Part shown: piece after piece, positions 1 to 10,654 of the stretch | How positions within the stretch are numbered: the stretch's first letter is position 1 | How the letters are laid out: the number at the start of each line of letters is the position of its first letter | The notes under the pieces: generated by a model | What the model saw: the letters and a program-made list of their open reading frames with translations, nothing else | Databases searched by the model: none | Told to the model about the DNA's origin: nothing | Made by a program: the position numbers and the translations under genes | DNA from: Candidatus Tayloriibacteriota bacterium | Lineage (GTDB): Bacteria > Patescibacteriota > Minisyncoccia > Phycocordibacterales > PALSA-1337 | Direction of reading: 5' to 3' | NCBI GenBank assembly: GCA_903839695.1 | Contig: CAIMDI010000016.1 | Span: 1 to 34,829, forward strand | DNA length: 34,829 bases

Positions 1-191
1 ATCAAACACCGTATAGCTGCTTTTCAAATGAGAAGTTTATATCTATCTTTCTGGGAAAAGGGTCGACATTCTTCTCAAAATTTATAACTTGTCGAGGAGC
101 GACTTCTTTTTTACATTAACTTATATTTGGTTTGGTGTCAACTTGATATATTATATTAAGTGTGTTATTGTTTAAATAGAAAGGATTAATA

Positions 192-1385
192 ATGAATAGA
201 AAGAATAAGAACAATGAAGCAAAGTGGCTTAGAAAAACATACGGCCAGAGAGTGTTGGTGAGGCCGGAGGACATTGAAAAACTTAAGAGTCTGAATTCTA
301 CTTTGGTCGAGCTCTGGAACATGGGTATTGATCAATGTAATGTCTGGTTGGCATTGGAAAAGGGGAATGTTGAAAAAAAACATATTACACCTATTAGCCT
401 GAATTATTGGCTGACTGGTGTGAGGAGTAACCCCAGATTTTCCGCGATCATCGCGGGGCTGGAAAGGGAGATGCTTCGCCGACTTGCTGGCGGTTTCTCT
501 TCGTATTTTGCCCTTCTGAAAAATAAGGACAACGAAGCAAAGCCACCAGGCAAAAGGAATGAGGGTTCATTCATCACGCTCACATGGACAAGTTTTGATG
601 TGACGAATGACGGAATTCTTTCAGCCTCGATAGGATCAAAACAGGAAGTCAAATTTGTCTTGGGTCAGTTCATAATGGACAAGATTAAAGAACTTCCAAA
701 GGGATCGAAAATTGCTCAGGTCACAGTCTCCAAAAGAGAAGGTGAATACTGGGCGAACTTCGTTTTTAACATCCCCATGCCAATGCCGGGTCCAGTTCCA
801 CAAAAGGGTGTTCTTGCAATCGACCTTGGTTCTGGGGACATCGCAATAAGTACATCAGGGGAACCTGTTGGGTCAGAGTTTTTGATTCCCACAAGACGTC
901 CTGACAAAAAATGGAATAAGGAAATCGCAGTCGTCAAGGAACGTGTCGAGAGATGTAAAAAATACTCTCGATCATGGAAAAGACGAATGGGTGCTCGCCG
1001 AATCATGCACAGGAAATCACTGAATCAGCACACCGATCACCAGAGAAAGCTGGCGGTATGGCTAGCTAGTCAGAGGATGACGATTGTAGTCGGTAAAATG
1101 AAGACGCGTCTAGGTCTGTCAAAGTCTTCTGGAACCGCTGAACAACACTGGGGTGTCCAAAACACTGGGTATGCATTTAGATTACTCATCTTTCTCAGGG
1201 AGAAAGCTGCCGAATACGGGATTCGTCTGATTGAACTTGCTGATCCCGCAAGAAAAGGAGACACAAATGATCCTGAGTCAAAGTTCACAGCGTCACGTGA
1301 ACTTCTCAAAAATGGCTGCGAACAGTTGAAGATCCCATTCCCGAGTTCGTGGAAAAGGATTGATAAGCCTTTCATTCCGGGATAA
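192..1385 (+). CDS. TnpB/Cas12-like (IS200/IS605 OrfB-type) protein, predicted nuclease-inactive
   Basis: 397 aa. TnpB-like order of segments: GVLAIDLGSGDIAISTSGEPV (RuvC-I), Arg/Lys-rich bridge, KLAVWLASQRMTIVVGKMKTRLGL (RuvC-II position, E replaced by G), WGVQNTGYAFRLLIFLREKAAEYGIRLIELADP, then FTASRELLKNG (RuvC-III-like helix, D replaced by K). No CxxC pairs. AAAGGA ribosome-binding-like sequence just upstream of the ATG. Confidence 0.75.
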   Translation: MNRKNKNNEAKWLRKTYGQRVLVRPEDIEKLKSLNSTLVELWNMGIDQCNVWLALEKGNVEKKHITPISLNYWLTGVRSNPRFSAIIAGLEREMLRRLAGGFSSYFALLKNKDNEAKPPGKRNEGSFITLTWTSFDVTNDGILSASIGSKQEVKFVLGQFIMDKIKELPKGSKIAQVTVSKREGEYWANFVFNIPMPMPGPVPQKGVLAIDLGSGDIAISTSGEPVGSEFLIPTRRPDKKWNKEIAVVKERVERCKKYSRSWKRRMGARRIMHRKSLNQHTDHQRKLAVWLASQRMTIVVGKMKTRLGLSKSSGTAEQHWGVQNTGYAFRLLIFLREKAAEYGIRLIELADPARKGDTNDPESKFTASRELLKNGCEQLKIPFPSSWKRIDKPFIPG

Positions 1386-1392
1386 TGCGCAA

Positions 1393-1430
1393 GCGGGCGA
1401 GTCGTTTTACGACTCGCCCGCCTTTTTCTT
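1393..1430 (+). terminator. Rho-independent terminator downstream of the TnpB-like ORF
   Basis: Perfect 12-bp stem GCGGGCGAGTCG-TTTTA-CGACTCGCCCGC (1393-1421) followed by CTTTTTCTT, 7 bp after the stop codon. Confidence 0.9.
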
Positions 1431-2570: not shown

Positions 2571-3404
2571 TCAAACAGAAGCAGTTTTTAATCTTTTTTC
2601 TACATTCATCCCCAACAGAGATTTCATCTGAATAATAGCCGTCTCATTCAATTTTCTTAACCTTTCGCCTTGTGTCATACCCATTCTTATAAACTCCGCA
2701 TTCACACTTTCCATATTTGCCAATACAAGCAACTGTTCAATAGATGCATAATCACGAACATTCCCCTCTTTTCCTTTATTCTCATCTCTCCAATGTTTTG
2801 CTATCTTTCCAAATAGTGCCACATTCAGAACATCTGCCTCATCGGCGTAAATAAATGATTCTTGTTCTTTGGTTATAAGTGCAGGAATAATATGCTCCTT
2901 GATAGCATCTGTATGTATTTTGTAATTTAGTTTGGTCAAAGTACGTTTAATATTCCAATCAAGTGATAGCCTGCGATTTTCATCTTCCTTTAAACGCTGA
3001 AATTCTTTTATTAAATAGAGTTTGAATTCTGGCGAGAGCCATGTAGCAAATTCAAAAGCAATGTCTTTATGGGCATAGGTACCGCCATAACGACCTGCAC
3101 TGGATCTGATACCAATAGCGTTTGTTAGATTTATCCAACGTTCCGGTGACAACATAAACGAAGGAACGCCTGCTTCATTCCTAACCGTACCGAATTCGGT
3201 ACGGTTAAAAATTGGATTATACATTTCCTCCCAAATTCCAATAAATTGAATTGTATACCTTGCAGATAGCCATTTTTGAACTACGAATCTTGGCTCGTCT
3301 TTATTTTTTAATTTGGCCATATCTGTTAAACAAATATAGTCATTATTGTCCTTCGCTGTTCTAATTTTAACCTCGATATCCTTAATTATTATTGATTTTG
3401 ACAT
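2571..3404 (-). CDS. KilA-N domain-containing protein (phage-type DNA-binding)
   Basis: 277 aa; ICLTDMAKLKN..., ...SPERWINLTNAIGIRSSAGRYGGTYAHKDIAFEFATWLSPEFKLYLIKEFQRLKEDE is typical of bacterial KilA-N proteins. Confidence 0.85.
   Translation of the reverse strand: MSKSIIIKDIEVKIRTAKDNNDYICLTDMAKLKNKDEPRFVVQKWLSARYTIQFIGIWEEMYNPIFNRTEFGTVRNEAGVPSFMLSPERWINLTNAIGIRSSAGRYGGTYAHKDIAFEFATWLSPEFKLYLIKEFQRLKEDENRRLSLDWNIKRTLTKLNYKIHTDAIKEHIIPALITKEQESFIYADEADVLNVALFGKIAKHWRDENKGKEGNVRDYASIEQLLVLANMESVNAEFIRMGMTQGERLRKLNETAIIQMKSLLGMNVEKRLKTASV
3182..3207. repeat. 26-bp perfect palindrome within the KilA-N CDS
   Basis: TAACCGTACCGAATTCGGTACGGTTA equals its own reverse complement. Confidence 0.95.
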
Positions 3405-3566: not shown

Positions 3567-4193
3567 CTAAACCTCCACCCCAGTAATCAACTTAAATATA
3601 AATAGTATTATTGGATCTATAAATTTCCACAAAAACAAAACTATAAACAGAAAAAAGAAAATAGAATATTGTTCAATGGTCTCTCGAATCTTGATCATAC
3701 TTTGTGGCAATATTGCAAAAAGCACCTTTGAGCCGTCTAGGGGTGGTAGGGGTATCATATTGAATACTGCCAATATTATATTTATATTTACAATAAATAA
3801 TGAAATACGTATAAAAGGAATATTCAATGATGAAGCAGGAAGAACGCTCAAACCATATCTGACTAATAATCCAAAGAATAAGGCTATTAATAAATTTGAT
3901 GCTGGACCTGCAATAGAAATAAGAAATTCACCCCATCTTTTATTTTTTACATTGTATGGGTTCCATATTATGGGTTTTGCCCACCCGAAGGTTAAACCCA
4001 AAAAAGACGTAATAATTGGTACTATCACGGAACCGAACATTTCTAGGTGTTTTAAGGGATTTAATGTTAATCTTCCCTGTAATCTAGGTGTCGGGTCACC
4101 CAGTAATTCAGCCGTATAACCATGAGAAAGCTCGTGAATTACCACGGACATTATGAGTATGAATATTGAAACGATAATGGTTAATATGTCCAT
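3567..4193 (-). CDS. Site-2 protease family (M50) membrane metalloprotease
   Basis: 208 aa membrane protein with HELSH near the N-terminus and NMIPLPPLDGSK, as in M50 proteases. Confidence 0.92.
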   Translation of the reverse strand: MDILTIIVSIFILIMSVVIHELSHGYTAELLGDPTPRLQGRLTLNPLKHLEMFGSVIVPIITSFLGLTFGWAKPIIWNPYNVKNKRWGEFLISIAGPASNLLIALFFGLLVRYGLSVLPASSLNIPFIRISLFIVNINIILAVFNMIPLPPLDGSKVLFAILPQSMIKIRETIEQYSIFFFLFIVLFLWKFIDPIILFIFKLITGVEV

Positions 4194-4247
4194 AATTTAT
4201 TCTTCTTACTTGCTAAATATATTATCTATGATAGCATATCTACCACT

Positions 4248-4493
4248 ATGGCTAAAGTTTGTGCAATAACAAAAAGAGGTTCAATACGAAGTGGCGGGTA
4301 CTCTAACAGAACTCGTGCTACTCAGTTTAATCCTACTGGAATCGTTAGAAGTTATGTAAATCTTCAAAAAAAGAAGATCTATGTTCCTGAACTTAAAAAA
4401 TCTTTCATTCTAAATATTTCTACTCGCGCATTAAAAACAATTCAAAAAAGAGGAGCTTTCGCAACATTAAAAAAAGCAGGAATAATAAAATAG
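4248..4493 (+). CDS. rpmB: 50S ribosomal protein L28
   Basis: 81 aa; MAKVCAITKRGSIRSGGYSNRTRATQFNPTG..., basic, L28-like. Confidence 0.85.
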   Translation: MAKVCAITKRGSIRSGGYSNRTRATQFNPTGIVRSYVNLQKKKIYVPELKKSFILNISTRALKTIQKRGAFATLKKAGIIK

Positions 4494-8947: not shown

Positions 8948-10654
8948 TCAAACAACATCAACAATCCTCAACCTCAACTCTGTTCTACCACCAAACAGTG
9001 ACTTCTCCATTGTCGCGATCAAATCAATAATATCGCCAATCTTTAGAAAATCACCTTCCCTGTTTTTAAAATACTCTTTATCCATAAAAAACCCAATCGC
9101 TTTTATTGCCTGACCATTTTCTTTTTTAAAAGTTAATTCCAAATGATTCTTTTCCTTTCCAAATTCCTTTATTCCAAATATTTTTATATTTTTAAAAATG
9201 AAAACTGGCTTTTTATTACCAACTCCAAACGGCGAAAGTTTTTCAATTTCCGCATAATTATTCCAATTAGCATATTCCAAAGGAATTTCCATATCAATAT
9301 AATCTGGCTCAATCATTACCTTCCCATCCTTCATGTCTTTAACTAAAATATCAAAAGCATTATTTAAATTATTCTCCAAATAGTGAATAGATTCATTTGA
9401 AACAGAAAAACCACCCGATGCAGAATGACCACCATATTGAAGCATTGTCTCCGAAGAAGCCTTATTCATTATTTCTACAACACTTACGGTGCCTCCAGAT
9501 CTACAAGATCCTTTAATAACACCATCGCCATCCCTTCCCCACAAAAATACAGGTTTATTAAATTCTTCTGCCAAAGTGTTAGCAACAAGACCAAGTAAAG
9601 ACGGTCTCCATTCAGGATTCCCCGCCACAATTACATTTCTAGAATTATCTGTATGTCTTTCTTTAATTATTTTTTTTACTTCTTTTACAAGTGAAGCAAC
9701 AACACCTTTTCTTTCATTATTTATTTTATCAAGATGTTCAACATATTTATGTGCCTCAATATCATCATCAGTCGCCAACAAACAAAAAGCATCCATAGGT
9801 AAACCCATTCTAGACGCAGCATTGATACGCGGAGTAATCATAAAACCAATATCATCCTCCGTTAAATGTTTTTGATCAATTTTTAAATGTCTTAATAAAC
9901 GCATTAGTCCTTTTCTTGGGCTAATTTTTAATACCCTTAAACCAAAATGTGCCAATGCCCTGTTTTCTCCAGTCAAAGGGACCATGTCTGAAAGAGTAGC
10001 AATACCAACCATATCCAATAGCCACTTTTCTTGACCTTCTTTTAAATTAAATCTATTAATTTTTAAAATTGCTTGTATTAATTTAAAACAAACGCCCGAA
10101 CCACAAAGAATTTTTTCTGGATATTTACAATCTTTCTGTTTATGATCAACGATAGCAAAAGCTGGAGGAATTTCCTCATGTGGTTCATGATGATCCGTAA
10201 TTATTACATCTATTCCATTTTTTTGAGCTAAACTGACGGCCTCAATGTCTGATATTCCACAGTCCAAAGTCACCAAGAGCTGAACCCCGTCTTTCACGAA
10301 TTGCTCTACCGCATCAGTATTCAGACCGAAGCCTTCATCGTGTCTGTGGGGAATGTAATTTGTAAAATTCTTAAATCCTATTTTTTTAAAAAAATCATGA
10401 AAAATAACTCCAGCAGGAATACCGTCTGCATCATAATCACTATAAATAACAATCTTTTCATTGGCATCTATGGCCTTGATTATCCTCTTCGCGGCCTTTT
10501 CTGCATCTTTTAACAGGAATGGATCATGAATATGCTTTTCATAATTCGGATTGAGAAATTCAGCCTTATCTTCTAAAGTCTCTATGCCTCGATGAAATAA
10601 TATATGATCAATAAAGGGCTTGTTGGTCTTTTTTCGTATTTCATATCGTGGCAT
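8948..10654 (-). CDS. recJ: Single-stranded-DNA-specific exonuclease RecJ
   Basis: 568 aa; IVIYSDYDADGIPAGVIFHDFF, LLVTLDCGISD, IITDHHEP, QYGGHSASGGFSV. Confidence 0.95.
   Translation of the reverse strand: MPRYEIRKKTNKPFIDHILFHRGIETLEDKAEFLNPNYEKHIHDPFLLKDAEKAAKRIIKAIDANEKIVIYSDYDADGIPAGVIFHDFFKKIGFKNFTNYIPHRHDEGFGLNTDAVEQFVKDGVQLLVTLDCGISDIEAVSLAQKNGIDVIITDHHEPHEEIPPAFAIVDHKQKDCKYPEKILCGSGVCFKLIQAILKINRFNLKEGQEKWLLDMVGIATLSDMVPLTGENRALAHFGLRVLKISPRKGLMRLLRHLKIDQKHLTEDDIGFMITPRINAASRMGLPMDAFCLLATDDDIEAHKYVEHLDKINNERKGVVASLVKEVKKIIKERHTDNSRNVIVAGNPEWRPSLLGLVANTLAEEFNKPVFLWGRDGDGVIKGSCRSGGTVSVVEIMNKASSETMLQYGGHSASGGFSVSNESIHYLENNLNNAFDILVKDMKDGKVMIEPDYIDMEIPLEYANWNNYAEIEKLSPFGVGNKKPVFIFKNIKIFGIKEFGKEKNHLELTFKKENGQAIKAIGFFMDKEYFKNREGDFLKIGDIIDLIATMEKSLFGGRTELRLRIVDVV

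What the first reader, a model, noticed from the sequence alone, without database searches (positions are those of the whole stretch)
192..1385. TnpB/Cas12-like protein with two of three RuvC catalytic residues lost and no zinc ribbon: candidate RNA-guided, nuclease-dead regulator
Seen directly: RuvC-I keeps Asp (LAIDLGSG, codon 822-824, D211). At the RuvC-II position, where TnpB normally reads (I/V)(I/V)E(D/N)L, the protein reads IVVGKMK; codon 1092-1094 is GGT, so going from GAA/GAG needs two base changes. In the RuvC-III segment, normally D-x-N-A-A-x-x-(I/L)-L, it reads KFTASRELL, with Lys (K364) in the Asp position. The CxxC...CxxC ribbon between them is absent, leaving a short ADPARKGDTNDPES linker. 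Established: nuclease-dead TnpB homologues (TldR) can act as RNA-guided repressors, and Cas12m binds DNA without cutting. Inference: the intact reading frame despite loss of the catalytic site suggests a retained non-cleaving function. I do not know of a described representative in this kind of genome.
Basis: partly seen in the sequence, partly recalled or inferred. Interest (0 to 1): 0.88.

Follow-up and report, generated by a model that had tools for sequence, protein, structure and literature searches.

The report
Orphan, probably nuclease-dead mini Cas12
A tiny-genome bacterium of the candidate phyla radiation carries one recently acquired gene for a small Cas12/TnpB-like protein that has probably lost DNA cutting; its nearest relative sits beside a CRISPR array, so it may bind rather than cut DNA, but no guide RNA for it was found here.

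Summary
It is a foreign gene (GC3 46% against 18-27% in neighbours) inserted between rpsG and fusA of a 732-kb Patescibacteria-type genome. It scores best to PADLOC's uncharacterised CRISPR type V profile 'Cas12_x1'. Its closest relative (Parcubacteria Greene0416_36, 29-32% identity) lies beside cas1 and a three-repeat CRISPR array. Next come archaeal plasmid TnpBs that also have Gly at the canonical RuvC-II position because their catalytic Glu lies elsewhere ('Ealt', six residues before the zinc ribbon). The real losses are the zinc ribbon and RuvC-III Asp; the Ealt Glu column holds Asp351. The CRISPR-linked relative lost all three. Codon-position evidence shows long protein-level selection. 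No cas1, array or omegaRNA exists in the assembled genome, and the contig ends 191 bp upstream. Best reading: an orphan, probably non-cutting, RNA-guided DNA-binding Cas12 with a missing or trans guide. Rivals: a relic, or weak residual nuclease. The nuclease-dead reading is partly supported; the TldR-like reading is not.

The parts
192..1385 (+). TnpB/Cas12-like gene P0001 (397 aa), Cas12_x1-like; D211 (822-824), Gly301 at canonical RuvC-II Glu (1092-1094), Asp351 at the alternative-Glu column (1242-1244), Lys364 at RuvC-III Asp (1281-1283)
897..905 (+). Codons for R236-P237-D238 of the RPDxxW motif shared only with the Parcubacteria and Methanomethylovorans relatives among the sequences compared
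1158..1169 (+). Codons for QNTG (323-326), an N[T/S]G..R motif shared with the same relatives
143..171 (+). Promoter-like site TTGATA-17-TATTGT with extended -10 TG; starts 2 bases after the end of repeat X
   Evidence: consensus match only
181..185 (+). AAGGA, likely ribosome-binding site 6 nt before ATG
   Evidence: sequence
1393..1421 (+). 13-bp G+C-rich stem, 3-nt loop, then a T run: intrinsic terminator close after the stop codon; leaves little room for a 3' omegaRNA
1..141 (+). End of a sequence (X) identical to the first 141 bases of contig C18, which continues into fusA: an assembly fork at a two-copy sequence. Bases 1-87 could encode the last 28 residues of an unidentified protein

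Best explanation
P0001 is an orphan, horizontally acquired member of a small, uncharacterised CRISPR type V effector family (PADLOC 'Cas12_x1') that descends from TnpBs with a relocated RuvC-II glutamate (Ealt TnpBs). It has lost the zinc ribbon and the RuvC-III Asp and most likely cannot cut. If it works, it most likely uses the retained WED/REC/RuvC scaffold to hold a guide RNA and bind matching DNA, blocking transcription or replication, as shown for Cas12m. Shown here: the ORF, the residues, the kinship, the CRISPR neighbourhood of the nearest relative, the insertion site, and the absence of cas1 and an array from the assembled genome. Inferred: loss of cleavage, RNA and DNA binding, and where the guide comes from (a trans source or the unassembled gap just upstream).
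For: Best profile Cas12_x1, 128 bits for P0001 and 487 for the G353 relative, against 24-26 bits for ordinary TnpBs. The G353 relative lies beside the cas1 3' end (Cas_Cas1 1.2e-7) and three perfect ~38-nt repeats with 34-36-nt spacers. P0001, G353 and the two Methanomethylovorans TnpBs form a group at 97/95, and each of the two long rows joins Methanomethylovorans when the other is left out (97/92 and 94/87). Shared motifs RPDxxW and N[T/S]G..R. P0001 versus G353: nucleotide identity by codon position 43/55/28%, and 56 of 83 identical residues use different codons, so protein-level selection acted. Models resemble Cas12f, TnpB, Cas12k and Cas12m, with WED, REC and RuvC elements present. G353 has lost all three catalytic positions (RuvC-I Ala, canonical RuvC-II Thr, Ealt column Ala, no RuvC-III Asp) yet keeps an open frame beside a CRISPR array. 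Inactivated Cas12s that interfere by binding are established (PMC12669027; PMC11013384).
Against: No cas1 in G000, no array of 3 or more repeats in the ~732 kb assembled, and the G353 repeat is absent: a lone effector without a known guide. No biochemical data. The C-terminal model (352-397) has pLDDT below 50, so RuvC-III cannot be judged in three dimensions. The G353 contig is only 2,563 bp of a metagenome bin. Only two genomes with clear family members were found, and P0001 itself is single and recent in its host (GC3 46%), so selection in this host is unproven.
Confidence: 0.5

Rival explanations
1. Relic: a horizontally acquired effector cut off from its array and adaptation genes, not functioning in this host and on its way to decay; the frame is open only because it arrived recently.
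For: No cas1 and no array in the assembled genome; host-unlike composition suggests recent arrival; absent from the genus mate G506, where rpsG and fusA are 59 bp apart; single copy.
Against: Open over 397 codons, with a promoter-like site, RBS and strong terminator closely fitted to it. The family-level losses are shared with a CRISPR-associated relative and lie behind a long history of protein-level selection, so they are not signs of decay in this copy.
Confidence: 0.3
2. Still a nuclease: D211, D351 at the Ealt column and one of the acids just before the RuvC-III helix (D357, D360 or E362) rebuild a metal site.
For: D351 falls in the column that holds the catalytic Glu in Ealt TnpBs; D211 is kept. 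Cas12m keeps altered triads (H-D-D, N-D-D) (PMC11013384).
Against: The aligned RuvC-III Asp is Lys; the zinc ribbon is absent; the closest CRISPR-linked relative has Ala at RuvC-I and at the Ealt column, so the family does not depend on the site. Even Cas12m with D-E-D triads does not cut dsDNA.
Confidence: 0.08
3. TldR-like domesticated regulator with one fixed guide encoded next to the gene.
For: Nuclease-dead TnpBs with adjacent guide RNA are established (PMC13418256); P0001 stands alone without an array.
Against: The terminator close after the stop and rpsG on the other strand 73 bp after the stop leave no room for a guide; no Rfam match of weight; no conserved partner gene; the relative is CRISPR-linked.
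Confidence: 0.07
4. Part of a larger machine, such as RNA-guided transcription (dCas12f-like) or RNA-guided transposition (Cas12k-like).
For: The top structure match of the P0001 model is an entry titled dCas12f-gRNA, with Cas12k entries also high.
Against: These matches share 8-17% identity and reflect the common fold; no sigma factor or transposase gene lies beside it; the G353 model does not rank dCas12f first.
Confidence: 0.05

Closest known systems
PADLOC-DB profile Cas12_x1 (PDLC01225, filed under CAS-V-F)
   Same: Best-scoring profile, E 1.9e-37 over residues 74-348; the G353 relative scores 487 bits and is beside cas1 and an array.
   Different: P0001 is far from the profile core (128 bits), unmatched at both ends, and has no array or cas1. 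The profile's seed sequences could not be seen.
Ealt TnpBs, nearest: Methanomethylovorans hollandica pMETHO01 WP_048831345 and WP_245546408
   Same: 25-27% identity, Gly at canonical RuvC-II, RPDxxW and N[T/S]G..R motifs, same clade.
   Different: They keep the relocated Glu, zinc ribbon and RuvC-III Asp, and have near-identical hairpins right after the stop that look like omegaRNA or element ends.
Cas12m (subtype V-M) and DNase-free Cas12c
   Same: Type V effectors that interfere by binding DNA without cutting.
   Different: Cas12m is ~600 aa with a zinc finger; no sequence match between the P0001/G353 profile and any solved Cas12m.
TldR nuclease-dead TnpB regulators
   Same: TnpB scaffold with inactivated RuvC.
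   Different: No adjacent guide RNA or target gene; the relative is CRISPR-linked.
dCas12f (PDB 9n9c, 9n9m)
   Same: Top fold match, E 8e-14; title indicates a dead Cas12f with guide RNA.
   Different: 13% identity, no sigma factor beside P0001. That 9n9c is the natural sigma-linked dCas12f is my recollection, not checked.

Membership tests
CRISPR type V effector family Cas12_x1 | Profile match as best hit | tested here: met
   1.9e-37, next best 3.9e-12
CRISPR type V effector family Cas12_x1 | CRISPR array and adaptation gene in the same locus or genome | tested here: not met
   No Cas1 in G000, no array in the assembled genome; contig ends 191 bp upstream, so an unassembled array is not excluded. 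Met by relative G353.
CRISPR type V effector family Cas12_x1 | Guide-bound DNA targeting | not testable with these tools
   needs RNA and binding assays
IS200/IS605 TnpB | TnpB fold with RuvC-I/II/III and zinc ribbon | tested here: not met
   Fold present; ribbon and RuvC-III Asp absent; NCBIfam and Pfam below cut-off
IS200/IS605 TnpB | Element ends and 3' omegaRNA | tested here: not met
   Terminator close after the stop, no omegaRNA-like region
Ealt TnpB | Glu six residues before first CxxC, Gly at canonical site | tested here: inconclusive
   Gly yes; Asp351 in the Ealt column, no CxxC
TldR | Inactivated RuvC in a TnpB | tested here: met
   RuvC-III Asp to Lys, no Glu at either RuvC-II site
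TldR | Guide RNA encoded immediately beside the gene | tested here: not met
Cas12m (V-M) | Sequence relation to Cas12m | tested here: not met
   Profile search of solved structures finds no Cas12m; fold match only

The most novel reading that the evidence does not exclude
A distinct, very small (about 400-450 aa), ribbonless, naturally non-cutting type V CRISPR effector lineage that arose from relocated-glutamate (Ealt) TnpBs, with a member that escaped from its array and acts in a candidate phyla radiation bacterium with guides supplied in trans, as a programmable DNA roadblock.
Probability: 0.2. Interest if true: 0.75.

Novelty: new variant of a known kind. Interest (0 to 1): 0.5.

Why it matters
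If it binds DNA with a guide, this would be among the smallest natural non-cutting Cas12 proteins and would show that RNA-guided binding can persist without a zinc ribbon or any catalytic site. It would also link a CRISPR effector lineage to Ealt TnpBs, the type of TnpB from which eukaryotic Fanzors are thought to come (PMC10711439). It is also a caution: a Gly at the canonical RuvC-II site must not be read as inactivation until the alternative glutamate has been checked.

Tried and rejected
RuvC-II Gly as evidence of loss: rejected after Ealt relatives were found. Intact array or cas1 elsewhere in G000: not found. Weak Cas12_x1 hits in other genomes (G627 an ordinary canonical-Glu TnpB, G1335 an ATPase-like ORF, G615 and G114 short frames with stops): rejected. 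Relatives in viral contigs, phages and GTDB contigs: only G353 and Ealt or ordinary TnpBs. Identity of X: no Pfam match, no phage match, no viral-contig match, no second source in loci held. Rfam hits around the gene: below gathering scores, taken as chance. A CRISPR-repeat-like sequence in the window upstream: only a 12-nt match of no significance. Literature search for a description of Cas12_x1: none found in the held library; the two papers most likely to hold one (Altae-Tran 2023 PNAS; CRISPR J 2025) are not held.

Full report
Observation. The ORF at 192-1385 is intact, 397 aa. The protein is a genuine TnpB/Cas12 relative: guided_TnpB 5e-14, OrfB_IS605 7e-5, PADLOC Cas12_x1 1.9e-37. An AlphaFold2 model (mean pLDDT 74) has WED, REC and RuvC elements and matches Cas12f and TnpB structures at E around 1e-13. 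The RuvC-I strand is 207-212 (D211 inside) and the RuvC-II strand spans 297-302; residues 352-397 are modelled with pLDDT mostly below 50, so RuvC-III cannot be judged from the model.

Relatives. In five overlapping samples of 247 to 387 genomes from the same phylum, class and order and from the relative's class, only one other genome has a clear homologue: G353, which is Parcubacteria group bacterium Greene0416_36, VMEV01000025.1. Its 2,563-bp contig carries the 3' end of cas1 (Cas_Cas1 1.2e-7), three perfect repeats of about 38 nt (GGTCTCAACCCCTAGCAAGGATTAGAGGGGGGTAGGCTA) with 34-36-nt spacers, a degenerate fourth repeat, a terminator-like hairpin, and then the effector on the same strand. 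It scores 487 bits to Cas12_x1. This ties the family to CRISPR rather than to transposons.

The RuvC-II question. The next closest proteins are two tandem TnpBs on a Methanomethylovorans plasmid (3e-20). They read IIIGKL at RuvC-II, with Gly where Glu is expected, but they carry ESYTSKKCCIC, the alternative glutamate six residues before the zinc ribbon described for Ealt TnpBs and Fanzors (PMC10711439). Halococcus, Halolamina and two near-identical phage TnpBs show the same pair of features. Gly301 in P0001 is therefore best read as inherited from Ealt TnpBs, not as a lost catalytic residue. At the Ealt column P0001 has Asp351, if the strand is aligned without a gap; G353 has Ala. At RuvC-III P0001 has Lys364 and no ribbon, and G353 has also lost RuvC-I Asp (Ala).

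Kinship and selection. A maximum-likelihood tree joins P0001, G353 and the Methanomethylovorans TnpBs at 97/95; because the two long rows might attract each other, each was left out in turn and the other still joined Methanomethylovorans (97/92 and 94/87). The motifs RPDxxW and N[T/S]G..R occur only in these four among the sequences compared. P0001 and G353 share 83 identical residues in 269 aligned positions, 56 of them with different codons, and nucleotide identity by codon position is 43, 55 and 28%. That is the mark of long protein-level selection. It does not show that selection still acts on P0001 in this host.

Context. In the genus mate G506, rpsG and fusA are 59 bp apart, and the gene is absent. 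In the window the gene lies convergent to rpsG, and its composition (GC 45%, GC3 46%) differs from its neighbours (33%, GC3 18-27%). It has a promoter-like site at 143-171, an RBS, and a strong terminator at 1393-1421, so it reads as a one-gene unit with no room for an omegaRNA. Bases 1-141 are identical to the start of contig C18, which continues into fusA; this 141-base overlap is an assembly fork, since the same length recurs at other contig ends. So two copies of X exist near this site, or strain variants do, and the stretch between the gene and fusA is not assembled. The genome has no Cas1 match, no array of three or more repeats, and not the G353 repeat (the scan recovers the G353 array as control).

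Mechanism. Most likely, if functional, P0001 holds a guide RNA and binds DNA as a roadblock, as shown for Cas12m and Cas12c. Steps shown: protein family, residue states, CRISPR neighbourhood in a relative. Steps inferred: loss of cleavage, RNA binding, DNA binding, and the source of a guide. The absence of any guide in the assembled genome makes a relic the main rival. A TldR-like use is disfavoured by the terminator and the lack of an adjacent guide. A residual nuclease built on D211 and D351 is possible but unlikely.

Novelty. A profile for this family already exists in PADLOC-DB, and inactivation of Cas12 is known to have occurred repeatedly. What I did not find described in the papers I could read is a CRISPR-linked, ribbonless, non-cutting effector descended from Ealt TnpBs; two papers that may describe it were not available. 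I therefore rate it a new variant of a known kind, of moderate interest.

Noticed in passing
window 1-141 and L024 (G000 contig C18) 1-141: Identical 141 bases at the starts of two contigs, one running into the TnpB-like gene and one into fusA; may hold the end of an unidentified protein (IKHRIAAFQMRSLYLSFWEKGRHSSQNL) in two copies or strain variants.
   Followed up: partly
L064 about 1119-1208 (5' UTR of the G353 effector): TCTCACCCCTAG in the leader of the effector gene matches the CRISPR repeat TCTCAACCCCTAG (score reached in 0.2% of shuffles); may be a degenerate repeat used for self-regulation or a tracr-like element.
   Followed up: partly
L110 3543-4922 and 5938-7272: Two tandem Ealt TnpBs on Methanomethylovorans plasmid pMETHO01 with near-identical hairpins right after each stop codon; a third similar hairpin lies at 9891-9923.
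   Followed up: partly
L106 1153-2238: Viral TnpB with Thr at the canonical RuvC-II Glu and no Glu at the alternative position, ribbon and RuvC-III Asp kept; possible inactivated TnpB.
   Followed up: no
L074 about 3590-4265: In the related genome G581 the same rpsG-fusA gap holds a different inserted ORF (by eye an ORF6N/KilA-type regulator, not tested), so this gap may be a repeated insertion site.
   Followed up: no
window 2571-3404: KilA-N domain protein (Pfam 2.3e-22) next to rpsL, a domain common in phages and mobile elements.
   Followed up: no
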